DNA of 64,000 bases from Phialocephala subalpina. Lineage: Eukaryota; Ascomycota; Leotiomycetes; Helotiales; Mollisiaceae. Positions within the stretch are counted from its first letter, which is position 1, and each line of letters starts with the position of its first letter. The notes under the pieces were generated by a model that made no database searches, was not told where the DNA came from, and saw only the letters and a program-made list of their open reading frames with translations. The DNA lies in NCBI GenBank assembly GCA_900073065.1, contig FJOG01000002.1, positions 365,535 through 429,534 on the forward strand, written 5' to 3'. Of this stretch, positions 1 through 22,285 are shown piece by piece. The translations under genes and the position numbers were made by a program.

Positions 1-1221
1 AACTTGTTTTCTCAAATTTTCATACCAAGTCTGCAGCTGTGTATGCAGACTTGAGGAGATTTGGAGGAGTCGGACTAGAACTGTTCTCTCTGCTGCTTTG
101 TTGATGCTTGCTTTGTTAGTACTCAAGGCAAGCATATCGAATGTCTCCATGATAGAAGGGATCTGGATCATCACATCCTGGAGCCGACAATATAGCCCGG
201 GGAGCTCTAACGAGGTTGCGCAGGCCTGCGAATCTAGCCCTGCCAGGAGTGATGTCTTGCGAGTTCGAAACGCGTCAAAGATCTAGATCTTGTCAGTCTC
301 CTATTACACAAAGCCTTGTGGTTATATTACAGCAATAGTTCTCATTCGCGAAAAGAGCTGCAGGCCGACCGGACTCTGATAGATGCTTGATCCGAGGATT
401 TGGAGAATTCGAGAACCGCCTCGGACATGGCTCACCCATCCGTCGCTTCCGTCCGATGGACCCGAAAACAGCTAGGACGTGGTTAGACGCATCGATCTGA
501 TCTACGAACCAGTAGCAAGACATACCTCGTACGTCGAAAGCATGATAATGCTTGCCAATGTCGCTTCTGGCGCCACCATTTTCCGTCTACTAATCGTCTT
601 TCTCAACTCTCCGAGCGCGGAGCCATACAGTTGGCGGCTTTCCATTATAAGGACTGGATCATGGTTGCAGGTTCCCACGTGCCCTACGCATAATGCGGCT
701 ACGGACATGGTGTATGCGGAATTGGTCATTGTCAAGTCAGGCAAAGTGTGGACCCACGACGCTGGTGACTGGCCGGGTATCGTTGGGCCTTGAGCGGCTT
801 CTGGAAGATACAAGCCGGCGAAGGTGGAGAATAGCTGCATTCGGTTTACTGAGTCAGAATTTGGAGATCTTGGAAATTGGTTCCCCCTCTTCTCATGGCG
901 GCTTTCCAACGCCGCCTTGCCTTGCTGCAGAGACGCTGTCTCCTTGGCTCCAAGCTGCTTCTTTCGGTCCGCGGTTGGGAGTACGTCGACTGCCTTCACA
1001 ATCGGCCTTGTCATATTGCTGTTGACAAAGAATTCGACATGGTTTGGGATGTGATATTCACATTTCAGATCCAGTCGTTCGCACCTTGAGCATGCAGGAC
1101 GGGAAAGATCACACTGTCAATGGATATCAGACGCCGACTCAATCCTCACGGATAGGCTTACCTTGATCTTTCGGCCTCGGCAAGCCGTGCACCGGCCTGT
1201 CCTGTTTCGAATTCCAACCAT
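1..1221 (-). CDS. Zn2Cys6 transcription factor, 3' end off the window edge
   Basis: DNA-binding nuclear regulator, likely of the adjoining cluster. Exons read on the minus strand: 1221-1162, 1113-526, 471-331 and 282-<1, all phase 0, with introns of 48, 54 and 48 bp. The N-terminus holds a perfect binuclear zinc cluster, C-x2-C-x6-C-x6-C-x2-C-x6-C, starting at residue 11 (CTAC then RGRKIK); the first intron falls exactly before the third cysteine. The rest (357 residues visible) is the helical middle region typical of fungal C6 regulators, including YELFSG followed by GWVSHVRGG and later a YENLRKQ stretch. The start is the only ATG just ahead of the zinc cluster. It is divergent from the FAD monooxygenase gene, sharing a 547-bp promoter. 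The target is inferred from position only. Confidence 0.85.
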
Positions 1222-1768
1222 TATGTTATTCTTCTCTCTCTATCGCCCCAGGATGGTAAGAGACACTTCGAGTCGGGCTCGGACTCTTGCTGTTCATGCG
1301 GGTACCTATCACGACCCCTTTTAGAAGCTTCTTGCGCTTTCCCGCAAGATTGCACCTTCGGTCCTGTCTTAGACGAGGAAAGTCCGCTATTTTATGTAGA
1401 TGTCAGCAGCTCGGCTCGAACCGAATTGGCTATTCAGCTGTCATCTTCATCCCTGTCGCGCATGATGGTTCCGCATCAAGTTAGTGCATCTACTCAGCGG
1501 CGAATCAGAATAGGGCTGAAGACTGTCTTCGACTTGCACCAACGTGAGTGTAAAATTGGTCAGTTTAATTTTCTTTTATCACTCACAGGTATTTCTCTCT
1601 ATGGATGACATGCGCTAGGCAGCTCATACCCGTAAGTCATATCCTGAGTAATCAGTAAGATGCTGATATATATCTGCGAAAGAATCACTCTGCCATCTGA
1701 TGTAGCGCCTGGATTTGTCTTCTTCGTTAAATATCAATAAGACAGAATTCTTGATATCATCGCAGACA
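1222..1768. promoter_or_regulatory. Divergent promoter region between regulator and FAD monooxygenase
   Basis: This 547-bp gap separates the start codons of two divergently transcribed genes. No gene is seen in it; short open frames show no protein-like composition. It holds a CGG-N6-CCG palindrome at 1412-1423 (spacer ctcgaa), the kind of site bound by Zn2Cys6 dimers. Confidence 0.5.
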
Positions 1769-3131
1769 ATGGCTCGCAACGACATCGAAAGAATTACTAG
1801 CCCTCACGTTCTCATTGTGGGAGCGGGAATCACAGGATTGTTGATTGCTCAAGGTTTGAAGAAGGTATGACCCTGTTACAATGCCCAGGATATTTTGACT
1901 GATACACATTCGAGGCTGGCATCACATACACAATATTCGATGCAGAGACTCCAGGCATTAGTCGTCCGAGAGAGTGGACTCTAGCTATCCACTGGTCCAT
2001 ACCAATTCTTGAGAAGCTACTTCCTGCAGAGCTTTTCAATCGATTGTCTGAGACTCAATGCGATCCAACACATGATCGAGGCGCCGAGGAGACAATTGAA
2101 CTCCGTAACAGCGAGACGGGAGAGGAGCTCAAAAGCATACCCACACCAAACATGAAGCGTGTGTCGAGGAAGAAACTCCGGTCCTTCTGTGCGGAAGGCA
2201 TCGATGTCCTTTGGGGAAAGACTCTTGATGATGTTACATGTGACGCGGAGGGAGAAACGGTCACGGCGCACTTTGCTGATGGCTCAAGTTATCAGGGGAA
2301 TGTACTCGTGGGTGCCGATGGACCGAAGTCGAAAGTCCGCGAGCTCTTACTGGGGAAAGAAAAGTCCCGCAACTCTTCCGTAGGTATTGTCTTCAACATG
2401 GCCATCGTGAAGTACAAAGATGCCGAGAAAGCGATGCATGTCAGATCCGGGCATCCTGTCAATTGTCTTGGATACAATCCAAAGGGCATTTTTACCGCGA
2501 TAGCGAGTAAGTACCCTGCCTCAATATAGTGGGCTATCGACACGATGCTGAATGAGTTAGTCTGCGACATCCCAGATCCGAAGAAACCCGAAACTTGGGT
2601 ATTTCAGCTTGCTTGTTCCTGGCTAGGCAAACGAGACACCAACCTCAGCAACGAACAACGTCTCGAATTCATCAAAACAGCAGCTCGAGGACTAGCAGAG
2701 CCATTTCGGTCTGCCAATTTGTGGATGCCGGATGATACAACGGTCCACACTGACAATATGTCGTATTGGATTCCCGTACCATTTGAAAGTCACAAAGGAA
2801 GAATCACACTTGTTGGAGATGCGGCACATCCTCTTCCGCCTCGTAAGTGTTTGTATCATCGATTCCAGTGGATAGGTACTGACCAGATTGAGATCGTGGC
2901 CAAGGCCTTAATCATTGCATCCTTGATGCCTTGAACTTTGTCGACGCTATCATGAAGCTGCAGGCAGAGCAAGGAACAAAAGAAGAATTGATCGCATCCT
3001 ATAATACAGAGCTGATCCAGAGAGGCGCAGAAGAGGTACGATTGTCTGTCAAAAGCGCTCTGATGGTGCATGATTGGGCATTGTTCATGGATTCTCCGTT
3101 GATGAAACATGGGGTGACCAAAGTAAGTTGA
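1769..3131 (+). CDS. FAD-dependent monooxygenase (aromatic hydroxylase type)
   Basis: Flavoprotein that would use NAD(P)H and O2 to hydroxylate an aromatic or polyketide substrate. Exons 1769-1864, 1915-2506, 2561-2842 and 2893-3131 encode about 402 residues. Introns are 50, 54 and 50 bp. Visible motifs: the N-terminal Rossmann GAGITG (residues 18-23) for the ADP moiety; the DG motif in VLVGADGPKSKVR; and the GD motif GDAAHPLPPHRGQG, which is recovered only by splicing the third intron. The length fits the single-component salicylate-hydroxylase-like family of metabolite clusters. The 3' end is uncertain: the last codons VS-stop overlap a perfect GTAAGT donor at 3124, so one more short exon may follow. 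Its position between two regulators and near the PKS suggests a tailoring role in the polyketide pathway (inference). Confidence 0.85.
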
Positions 3132-20342: not shown

Positions 20343-20449
20343 ATCCAGCACCACTTTTCAGTTAACCCTCCATGAACACATACCTTCACCTTCACTTTTC
20401 TATTATTTCCATCTCTTGCCAAACTTACCAAATCTAAACATACTTTACC

Positions 20450-22285
20450 ATGGCTCCTCTCTCAGACTCATATGCAGCCACTGGCTTATTAGCTATACGA
20501 ACTGCAGCAATTCTCACCATTCTCTGGCTGGTACAATGCATCCTTCGAGCGATATACAATATCTCGCCGTTTCACCCCTGCCACCAGATCCCGGGCCCCA
20601 AGCTGGCTGCTTCGTCGTACCTATACGAGTTCTACTTCGACTTCATCAAATGGGGAAGATACATTAATGAAATTCAGAGAATGCATGAGAAATATGGTAC
20701 GTGAGCAAAGTCCAAAACAGAAGGACAACAAAGCCGAAGTTGTACTTTTCACAGGTCCGATTGTGCGAATCAATCCAGACGAAGTTCACTGCACCGACCC
20801 AAATTTCATCGACGAAATTTATCCCGTCAGCGGCAGGAAGAGAAACAAGCCCTATTGGCACGTAAAGAATCTGGTTGGACCGTACTTATCACTCATTCCC
20901 CTGCTCTCCGATCCTTCAGCTGACACATATATATCAGAGCCTTAACAGCCGGATTCTCAACCCAAGACCACGATCTGCATCGCCTTCGACGCGTACCTCT
21001 CCAAAAGATTTTCTCCAAAGCCACAATCGCCAACTTAGAGCCAGTGATTCACGACCTCGCTCAACAACTTTGCAACAAACTTCTCGCTCAAGCAGACTCC
21101 AAACGAGGGTCATTTGATCTGACTGCTGCATATAGTTGTTATACTTCTGACGTAGTCGCTAGCTATTGCTTTGGAGAAAGCTTTGGGTTTCTGGAGCAGG
21201 AGTCGTTCGAACCGAATTTCAGAAGAGCTGTATTCTCGATTCTGAACACAAGATACTTCTTCAAGTTCTTTCCATGGTTGAAGCAACTTATGAAAGTGGA
21301 ACCTTAGTACGTTGCCCTCTTGCAGCCGGTTTGATTGAATAGCGCAGCTAACATGCTCTTCCTGACAGTCTCAGAAAATATATGCCAGAAGACATGACCA
21401 TCCTCAACAAAACATTACACGTCACTATTCCAAGATTGGTAAGACAAGCACAAGCCGAGTACGAAGCAGGCATAGTGAAAGCCATCCCAACGGTTTTTGA
21501 TGCCTTATACGAATCAGACCTACCCCCGGAAGAGAAATCAGTCTATCGCCACACCGGTGAAGCTTTAATTTTACTTTCAGCAGGCACAGAAACAGCCAGT
21601 TGGACACTGTCAGTAACCACATTCCATATCCTCAACAACCCTTCGATCTTGTCTCGACTCACAGCTGAGCTCGAGAAAGCGGTATCAGACCCACGGAAAC
21701 TGCCAACTTGGTCAACTCTCGAGAATCTTCCATATCTTAGTGCCGTTATTAATGAGGGCCTCAGACTCTCTTATGGCATTGTCGGCCGCACCTCGCGGGT
21801 CCCAGTGGAAGAAGATCTCCATTATCATGGTACTTGGACTCCTCCACTGGGCTCGTCAAGTGCGCCAGTCACAGTCAGCTACATCGTGCCTCGCGGGACA
21901 GCAGCTTCGATGTCCAGCTACATCACTCATCATGATGAGATGATATTCCCTGATTCACATGAATTTCTGCCGGACAGATGGTTCGATGAGAACGGACTGT
22001 GGAGGAAAGATCTGGAACGTTGTCTATTATCATTCTCTAAAGGCAGTCGTCAGTGTTTGGGAATGAAGTAAGCTTATATATCACTAGAAGAATGCGTACT
22101 GATACTGACGATGAAGCAGTTTGGCGAGATGTGAGTTAACCTTAGCTCTTGCAGCGCTGGTGCTGCGCGTTTTACCACGGATGCACTTGCATGAAACGAC
22201 GACCAAGGATGTGAAGTTTGACTTCGACTTGGGCGTGCCGATGGTGGAGAAGGGGAGCAAAGGTGTATTTGTATTGGTGACATAA
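20450..22285 (+). CDS. Cytochrome P450 (trichodiene-oxygenase-like)
   Basis: Membrane-bound haem monooxygenase. Exons 20450-20696, 20755-20881, 20938-21306, 21369-22067 and 22120-22285 give 535 residues; introns are 52-62 bp and all phases agree. An N-terminal hydrophobic helix (AILTILWLVQCILRAIY) anchors it in the ER, followed by the proline-rich hinge IPGPKLAA. The I-helix oxygen-binding motif is AGTETAS, the K-helix ExxR is EGLR, and the haem loop is FSKGSRQCLG with C477 as the iron ligand. The motif FIDEIYPVSGRKRNKPYW and the overall layout resemble the trichodiene-oxygenase-like P450s common in metabolite clusters. It is co-oriented with the PKS 3.1 kb upstream and is a plausible tailoring oxidase. 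The substrate is unknown. Confidence 0.9.

What the first reader, a model, noticed from the sequence alone, without database searches (positions are those of the whole stretch)
1..22285. Orphan non-reducing PKS cluster with methyltransferase domain, two oxidases and two local regulators
A complete SAT-KS-AT-PT-ACP-CMeT-TE synthase sits with an FAD monooxygenase, a P450 and two Zn2Cys6 regulators. The domain order is established for synthases of C-methylated orsellinate-type acids (for example those feeding mycophenolic acid or DMOA meroterpenoids). No prenyltransferase or terpene cyclase is visible here, so the product may be a non-prenylated methylated aromatic; the cluster may continue to the left.
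Basis: partly seen in the sequence, partly recalled or inferred. Interest (0 to 1): 0.75.

Follow-up and report, generated by a model that had tools for sequence, protein, structure and literature searches.

The report
Uncharacterised fungal aromatic polyketide gene cluster
This is an intact but uncharacterised gene cluster of a fungus that lives in tree roots; it very probably makes a small methylated aromatic acid or lactone, is of a familiar type, and could be one of two candidate sources of compounds reported from a sister fungus.

Summary
A complete non-reducing PKS, SAT-KS-AT-PT-ACP-CMeT-TE (five exons, 9430-17302, 2542 aa), lies with an FAD monooxygenase (1769-3131), a P450 (20450-22285) and two Zn2Cys6 genes; the leftmost runs off the window. 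The genome is Phialocephala subalpina. The gene is in print as PAC_01338 (SM cluster 4, "citrinin biosynthesis-like"), product unknown. It sits in a widespread "BcPKS19" group: no name shown for the 120 best homologues is that of a characterised DMOA, 5-MOA or citrinin synthase (many rows are unnamed). The CMeT pocket has Leu, not the Phe that marks DMOA synthases, at the CitS-2101 position. No UbiA-type prenyltransferase was found near. So a non-prenylated C-methylated aromatic acid or lactone is likeliest; 5-MOA, 3-MOA and a methylated pentaketide (sclerotinin type) stay open. The sister species P. europaea makes sclerin, sclerolide and sclerotinins A and B, and P. subalpina lists only two NR-PKSs with a CMeT domain, this one and PAC_02435. 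The oxidases are not shown to travel with the PKS: the 92% identical Acephala synthase has no listed partner, and the FAD gene is a separate paralogue of an enzyme shared by other Helotiales. Known kind, unknown product.

The parts
1..1221 (-). Zn2Cys6 regulator, N-terminal part; gene continues left of the window
   Evidence: PF00172 42 bits on the finger joined by eye, PF00172 23.1 and PF11951 23 bits on the unjoined ORF 505-1116; frames read
1769..3131 (+). FAD-dependent monooxygenase, 402 aa, introns 1865-1914, 2507-2560, 2843-2892
   Evidence: Model; 100% identical to P. subalpina P0121; PF01494 84 bits
3698..6127 (-). Zn2Cys6 regulator with Fungal_trans domain, between FAD gene and PKS
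   Evidence: PF04082 104.9 bits; PF00172 31.5 bits on the finger joined by eye
9430..17302 (+). Non-reducing PKS, 2542 aa, exons 9430-10050, 10103-16193, 16261-16629, 16691-16773, 16838-17302 (PAC_01338)
   Evidence: published length and domain order
9700..9939 (+). SAT domain, core match
   Evidence: PF16073 37.4 bits
10769..11866 (+). KS domain
   Evidence: PF00109 258.4 and PF02801 117.6 bits
12350..13144 (+). AT domain
   Evidence: PF00698 88.5 bits
13511..14431 (+). PT domain, His and Asp of the usual dyad present
   Evidence: TIGR04532 114.8 bits, cut-off 168; His in 120 of 120 and Asp in 113 of 121 rows with a letter there
14564..14740 (+). ACP domain
   Evidence: PF00550 45.4 bits
14951..15817 (+). 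C-methyltransferase domain (HTH_51 plus Methyltransf_12)
   Evidence: 142 of 365 aligned positions identical to the CitS domain 5mpt
16261..17302 (+). C-terminal alpha/beta-hydrolase (TE) domain with Ser-Asp-His
   Evidence: PF07859 56 bits on the exon-3 ORF; PDB sequence relatives are esterases and lipases, best E 1e-07
17750..18369 (-). Small membrane-protein-like ORF, interrupted by the repeat at 18079-18235; relation to the cluster unknown
   Evidence: Frames; no Pfam match to its downstream piece
18079..18235 (.). Dispersed LTR-like repeat, apparently solo, flanked by a 5-bp direct repeat
   Evidence: 39 other matches at 82-95% among 40 scored of 108 candidates, 6 same-contig same-strand pairs 5.73-5.90 kb apart; flanks read
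20450..22285 (+). Cytochrome P450, 535 aa, introns 20697-20754, 20882-20937, 21307-21368, 22068-22119
   Evidence: Model; 100% identical to P. subalpina P0241; PF00067 on two exon ORFs

Best explanation
The PKS is a working iterative non-reducing synthase. SAT loads a starter (acetyl most likely), KS/AT extend it with malonyl units, CMeT adds one or more methyl groups to the growing chain, PT folds it by aldol cyclisation into one aromatic ring, and the hydrolase-type TE releases a free acid that may close to an isocoumarin-type lactone. The FAD monooxygenase and the P450 then probably oxidise the ring or a methyl group, under the two local Zn2Cys6 regulators. Shown: intact domains, motifs, gene structure and neighbours. 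Inferred: starter, chain length, C2-C7 folding, methyl positions, acid release, and that the two oxidases act on this product.
For: Domain order and motifs. The CMeT pocket matches CitS at 10 of 17 listed positions, the catalytic His and Glu among them. The same architecture in Preu3 makes 3-methylorsellinic acid in yeast, with TE needed for release (PMC9116485 passages). TE looks like an esterase/lipase. No UbiA match near. PAC_01338 is assigned to a putative SM cluster (number 4) in print, whose gene content I did not see.
Against: No expression or metabolite data. Linkage of the oxidases to the PKS is not seen elsewhere: of 120 listed FAD homologues (of 712) and 120 listed P450 homologues (of 701), none is named Acephala, although Acephala macrosclerotiorum has the 92% identical PKS. 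The second CMeT synthase locus of the same genome shares neither oxidase within the 28 kb searched. A retroelement scar and an interrupted ORF lie between PKS and P450.
Confidence: 0.62

Rival explanations
1. The synthase makes a C-methylated pentaketide of the sclerotinin type, which the FAD enzyme and P450 convert towards sclerin and sclerolide, the compounds known from the sister endophyte P. europaea.
For: P. europaea makes sclerin, sclerolide, sclerotinin A and B (PMC8622582, one passage). P. subalpina lists 8 NR-PKSs, of which only PAC_01338 and PAC_02435 carry an MT domain (PMC5148876 passages). AsbPKS, an NR-PKS with CMeT, makes anhydrosclerotinin B when expressed with the esterase AsbTE (PMC11579551, main text).
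Against: The chemistry is for P. europaea, not shown for this strain. Two synthases compete, with different CMeT pockets. AsbPKS has Glu at CitS-2094 where this one has Ile, and lacks a TE. S. sclerotiorum is a source of sclerin, but its four NR-PKSs are named SsPKS12, 13, 17 and 4, with 17 and 4 the proposed sclerotinin candidates (PMC6941272 passages), and no listed homologue here is named Sclerotinia. In Malbranchea the sclerin synthase SclA is reported to have no MT domain (PMC11766578 passages).
Confidence: 0.14
2. The synthase makes 5-methylorsellinic or 3-methylorsellinic acid, a simple tetraketide.
For: Leu at CitS-2101 is the residue reported for 5-MOA synthases; Preu3, with this architecture, and PkbA make 3-MOA.
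Against: Only one of 17 pocket residues is diagnostic in the text read, the residue logos were not seen, and the paper says KS also sets the methylation pattern. No such named synthase is among the 120 listed homologues.
Confidence: 0.3
3. The synthase makes 3,5-dimethylorsellinic acid for a meroterpenoid.
For: Domain order shared with AusA, Trt4 and AndM type synthases (recalled; PFICI_00366, with this order, is proposed to make DMOA).
Against: Leu instead of the Phe conserved in DMOA synthases at CitS-2101; no UbiA match near.
Confidence: 0.05
4. The two oxidases, and perhaps one regulator, are neighbours by chance; the PKS alone, or with genes elsewhere, makes the product.
For: No conserved linkage seen; SlPKS4 alone was sufficient for its isocoumarin and its seven neighbours gave no new compound (PMC10532586, parts 1 and 2 of 5).
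Against: The FAD gene is a second copy, distinct from the one shared with other Helotiales on another contig, as expected if it was recruited to a pathway; a Zn2Cys6 gene lies between it and the PKS.
Confidence: 0.35

Closest known systems
P. subalpina PAC_01338, SM cluster 4 (Schlegel 2016, PMC5148876, passages)
   Same: Taken as the same gene: species, 2542 aa and domain order SAT-KS-AT-PT-T-MT-TE agree; its letters were not compared
   Different: The passages give no product beyond 'citrinin biosynthesis-like'
Acephala macrosclerotiorum 'BcPKS19' (P0001)
   Same: 2056 of 2201 aligned residues identical
   Different: Annotated 2201 aa without SAT; no listed FAD or P450 partner
PAC_02435 (P0032), second CMeT NR-PKS of P. 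subalpina
   Same: Same published domain order; 1516 of 2430 aligned residues identical
   Different: Different CMeT pocket and no FAD or P450 homologue in the 28 kb searched
CitS (PksCT), citrinin synthase
   Same: CMeT domain 142 of 365 aligned positions identical, catalytic His and Glu kept
   Different: 7 of 17 pocket residues differ; this synthase has its own TE, whereas the esterase CitA takes part in release from CitS
AsbPKS, anhydrosclerotinin B synthase (PMC11579551)
   Same: NR-PKS with CMeT; product related to compounds known from P. europaea
   Different: Ile here, not Glu, at CitS-2094; TE is fused here
Preu3 and PkbA, 3-methylorsellinate synthases (PMC9116485 passages)
   Same: Preu3 is SAT-KS-AT-PT-ACP-CMeT-TE
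   Different: Sequences not available here; neither name is among the 120 listed homologues

Membership tests
Non-reducing iterative PKS with CMeT and TE | SAT, KS, AT, PT, ACP, CMeT, TE in this order in one protein, no KR/DH/ER | tested here: met
   no KR or ER family matched, the only DH-type match (PS-DH) lies on the PT domain; PT model below its curated cut-off but both catalytic residues present
DMOA synthase | Phe at the CitS-2101 position of the CMeT pocket | tested here: not met
   Leu; rule from PMC11579551
DMOA synthase | Groups with AusA/Trt4/AndM in a KS or PT tree | not testable with these tools
5-MOA synthase | Leu at CitS-2101 | tested here: met
   not sufficient, since 5-methyl-TAL synthases share it
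5-MOA synthase | Product 5-methylorsellinic acid | not testable with these tools
   Needs expression
Anhydrosclerotinin B synthase (AsbPKS) | Glu at CitS-2094 and no TE domain | tested here: not met
   Ile and a fused TE; no Glu there in any of the 121 aligned rows
Sclerotinin A synthase | Pentaketide with three C-methyls | not testable with these tools
   No characterised CMeT-bearing sclerotinin A synthase met to compare with
Citrinin synthase (CitS) | CMeT pocket residues of CitS | tested here: not met
   10 of 17 identical
Methylphloroacetophenone synthase (usnic acid) | Claisen-cyclase type TE and membership of the MPAS clade | tested here: inconclusive
   The TE exon ORFs match Abhydrolase_3 and no thioesterase family at E <= 0.01, but what MPAS itself would match was not tested; the MPAS name on P0116 and P0119 is only a database label
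Meroterpenoid cluster | UbiA prenyltransferase in the cluster | tested here: not met
   7 UbiA matches in the genome, none in the window, nearest on the same contig about 1.69 Mb off; the withheld part of the left flank could not be read

The most novel reading that the evidence does not exclude
PAC_01338 is the synthase for sclerotinin A in the Phialocephala-Acephala root endophytes, a tri-C-methylating pentaketide NR-PKS of another make than the MT-less Malbranchea SclA, and its neighbouring FAD monooxygenase and P450 carry out the ring-opening and rearrangement to sclerin and sclerolide. Sclerin would then have arisen by two different synthases.
Probability: 0.1. Interest if true: 0.55.

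Novelty: new member of a known kind. Interest (0 to 1): 0.3.

Why it matters
A widespread group of methylating NR-PKSs (120 listed homologues, named ones from Helotiales, Xylariales, Pleosporales, Aspergillus, Penicillium, Clonostachys and a lichen, the rest unnamed) has no product assigned in anything I read. This intact member in a common tree-root endophyte could give the group its first product, and would test whether the sclerotinins of PAC fungi, reported alongside inhibition of Phytophthora, come from one of two named genes.

Tried and rejected
DMOA/meroterpenoid reading: set aside on the CMeT residue and the absence of UbiA matches nearby. Citrinin: rejected as identity, pocket differs at 7 of 17 positions. 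I first thought that FAD homologues in Hyaloscypha, Stipitochalara and Mollisia (61-67%, on contigs of other lengths than their PKS homologues in 3 of 3 species) showed decoupling; the tree shows they group with the other P. subalpina copy (C29), so the argument was dropped. Contig-length matching for P450 and PKS: of the three species that I found by eye with single-member clusters in both lists, Apiospora rasikravindrae has equal contig lengths, Hypoxylon FL0890 and FL0543 do not; too thin to use, though the first speaks for linkage. MFS transporters: one search scored 9 of 1002 candidates, so it says nothing about the window. BcPKS19 literature (4 papers; passages of one): no product seen. 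Clonostachys (listing; passages of one paper): no product seen for this group. A PDB search with the PT domain failed on a wrong frame and was not repeated. The P450 had no PDB sequence match at E <= 1e-20; the FAD enzyme's PDB relatives are generic flavin monooxygenases, TropB and SorC among them, best E 6.3e-17, too distant to name a reaction. No structure prediction was run.

Paper searches behind 'no product in print that I found'. Seen: PMC11579551 main text in full; PMC10532586 parts 1-2 of 5 plus passages; passages only of PMC5148876, PMC8622582, PMC6941272, PMC11766578, PMC9116485, PMC9605436, PMC8262933, PMC8403587, PMC11173184, PMC6337363, PMC9743008, PMC6177402; PMC5748589 gave no matching passage; PMC3152146 in the listing only. 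No supplements.
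Full report
What is there. The window is G000:C47:365535-429534 of a 68.1 Mb genome in 119 contigs. My spliced FAD and P450 models are 100% identical over full length to Phialocephala subalpina proteins, so I take the source to be that root endophyte; contig lengths differ slightly (3710936 here; 3716956 in the database), perhaps another version of the assembly. From left to right: a Zn2Cys6 regulator running off the window edge (minus), an FAD monooxygenase 1769-3131 (plus), a Zn2Cys6 regulator 3698-6127 (minus), the PKS 9430-17302 (plus), a small interrupted ORF (minus), and a P450 20450-22285 (plus).

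The synthase. Five exons give 2542 aa. Pfam finds SAT, KS, AT, PP-binding, HTH_51 plus methyltransferase and, in exon 3, Abhydrolase_3; NCBIfam adds the fungal PT domain at 114.8 bits, under its cut-off of 168. The catalytic residues are present and nearly invariant among the aligned rows that have a letter there, for example KS Cys 118 of 118, PT His 120 of 120, PT Asp 113 of 121, CMeT His 119 of 120 and TE Ser 75 of 75. The TE has esterase and lipase relatives in the PDB. Nothing looks broken in this gene.

Already catalogued. The P. subalpina genome paper lists PAC_01338, 2542 aa, SAT-KS-AT-PT-T-MT-TE, SM cluster 4, 'citrinin biosynthesis-like', and a second such gene, PAC_02435 of 2498 aa (PMC5148876 passages). 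I take the window PKS to be PAC_01338 from species, length and domain order; its database entry was not among my hits. PAC_02435 is taken to be P0032 (2498 aa, same species), found at C46:288.0-295.7 kb. Eight non-reducing PKSs are listed in that table; these two are the only ones with MT.

Relatives. Of 7992 candidates scored, 7452 had E <= 1e-50 and the 120 best were listed. The best is an Acephala macrosclerotiorum protein labelled BcPKS19 (92%; 2056 of 2201 aligned residues), then Lepidopterella at 71%, and unnamed, Helotiales, Xylariales and other sequences down to about 50%. No shown name is a characterised synthase, but many rows are unnamed and names are cut; 'methylphloroacetophenone synthase' on two Apiospora proteins is a label only. 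In a tree of 54 rows, of which 53 were picked by me from the 120, the window PKS pairs with Acephala (SH-aLRT 100) and then joins Stipitochalara, Hyaloscypha and three unnamed rows (95); PAC_02435 pairs with Mollisia (100). I could not add characterised synthases.

Methylation pocket. [quoted passage not shown] Aligned to CitS through 5mpt, the window reads LFVYLLTNHEIWLVFWV: Leu at 2101 and Ile at 2094. Of the rows with a letter at 2101, 108 of 119 have Leu and 5 have Phe. PAC_02435 reads LFLYIPANHEMWLYIWI, so the two P. subalpina synthases may well methylate differently. The authors warn that KS also matters: changing the residue in NvfA gave only partial conversion. This speaks against DMOA and leaves 5-MOA, 3-MOA and pentaketides open.

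Partners. In P. subalpina the FAD enzyme has a second copy at C29:594.2-595.6 kb, 273 of 402 identical, which groups with the Hyaloscypha, Stipitochalara and Mollisia enzymes and one unnamed row (bootstrap/SH-aLRT 100/99) while the window copy stays outside (29 rows picked by hand). The window copy is thus a separate paralogue, as expected of a gene recruited to a pathway, but this is inference. P450 relatives outside the species are an unnamed row at 78% and a large family at about 50-59% in Xylariales, Trichoderma, Colletotrichum and others. No listed FAD or P450 homologue is named Acephala (0 of 120 each, lists capped). The PAC_02435 locus has neither oxidase in the 28 kb searched. So the cluster in this form may be peculiar to P. 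subalpina or PAC; the oxidase step is unproven.

Edges. Of 40 kb fetched to the left, part was withheld as N; the readable part shows an alpha-galactosidase and hAT transposase pieces and otherwise, among ORFs of 130 aa or more, nothing that I recognised. To the right, among the ORFs that I gave to Pfam, the next recognised are an HbpS-like one near 28.7 kb, an aldo-keto reductase near 31 kb and a third Zn2Cys6 one near 34.6 kb. UbiA: 7 matches genome-wide, none near.

A scar inside the cluster. A 157-bp repeat at 18079-18235 has 39 other matches in the genome at 82-95%, from 40 scored of 108 candidates; six same-contig, same-strand pairs lie 5.73-5.90 kb apart, which suggests the LTR of a retroelement of about 5.9 kb. 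The window copy stands alone, is flanked by a 5-bp direct repeat, and splits a small minus-strand ORF with membrane-like segments (by eye).

Reading. The best-supported mechanism is an iterative NR-PKS that makes a C-methylated single-ring aromatic acid, released by hydrolysis or lactonisation, then oxidised. The more specific idea is sclerotinin. A review states that P. europaea makes sclerin, sclerolide and sclerotinins A and B (PMC8622582, one passage). Sclerotinin A is a C13 tetramethyl dihydroisocoumarin, C13H16O5 (formula and name in the listing of PMC3152146; that this compound is sclerotinin A is recalled), which fits a pentaketide with three added methyls. Only two listed P. subalpina NR-PKSs have a CMeT. 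Against it: S. sclerotiorum, a source of sclerin, has four NR-PKSs, named SsPKS12, 13, 17 and 4 (PMC6941272 passages), and no Sclerotinia protein is named in my list; Malbranchea SclA is reported without MT (PMC11766578 passages); and the chemistry is from another species. I give 0.14 to the sclerotinin-type product and 0.10 to the full version with both oxidases.

Verdict. A real, intact, ordinary cluster, already catalogued and without a known product that I could find. Its interest lies in the unassigned group and in a direct test of the sclerotinin question.

Noticed in passing
window 18079-18235: LTR-like dispersed repeat with a 5-bp flanking duplication splits a small minus-strand ORF between PKS and P450; at least 39 other matches, six same-contig pairs about 5.8 kb apart.
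   Followed up: partly
G000 C29:594241-595613 (L021): Second copy of the FAD monooxygenase, 273 of 402 identical, grouping with enzymes of other Helotiales; the nearest KS match on that contig's list is about 293 kb off.
   Followed up: partly
G000 C46:288021-295726 (L022, L023): PAC_02435 (P0032), the other CMeT NR-PKS; its CMeT pocket differs from the window's, so perhaps another methylation pattern.
   Followed up: partly
window, PKS linker in the second exon between SAT and KS: Repeated NGSANG units in the linker, a run that may vary between strains.
   Followed up: no
one search list: The P. subalpina entry for this PKS is not among the listed hits although the FAD and P450 entries of the same species are found; reason unknown.
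   Followed up: no
window 38182-39528, minus: Secreted-looking protein with Cys-bearing units repeated several times; only a weak Pfam match (E 0.03).
   Followed up: no
window 53732-54643, plus: HET-domain (heterokaryon incompatibility) ORF (PF06985, 86.3 bits).
   Followed up: no
window 60498-62945, minus: TRP-like ion channel ORF (PF06011, 384 bits).
   Followed up: no
window 34644-35816, minus: A third Zn2Cys6 regulator, right of the described cluster, near an aldo-keto reductase ORF at 31066-31632.
   Followed up: no
The Lepidopterella palustris PKS (Dothideomycetes, recalled) is 1814 of 2521 identical to the window's, nearer than the named Helotiales ones other than Acephala; patchy inheritance or transfer possible, its place in the tree is unresolved.
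   Followed up: no
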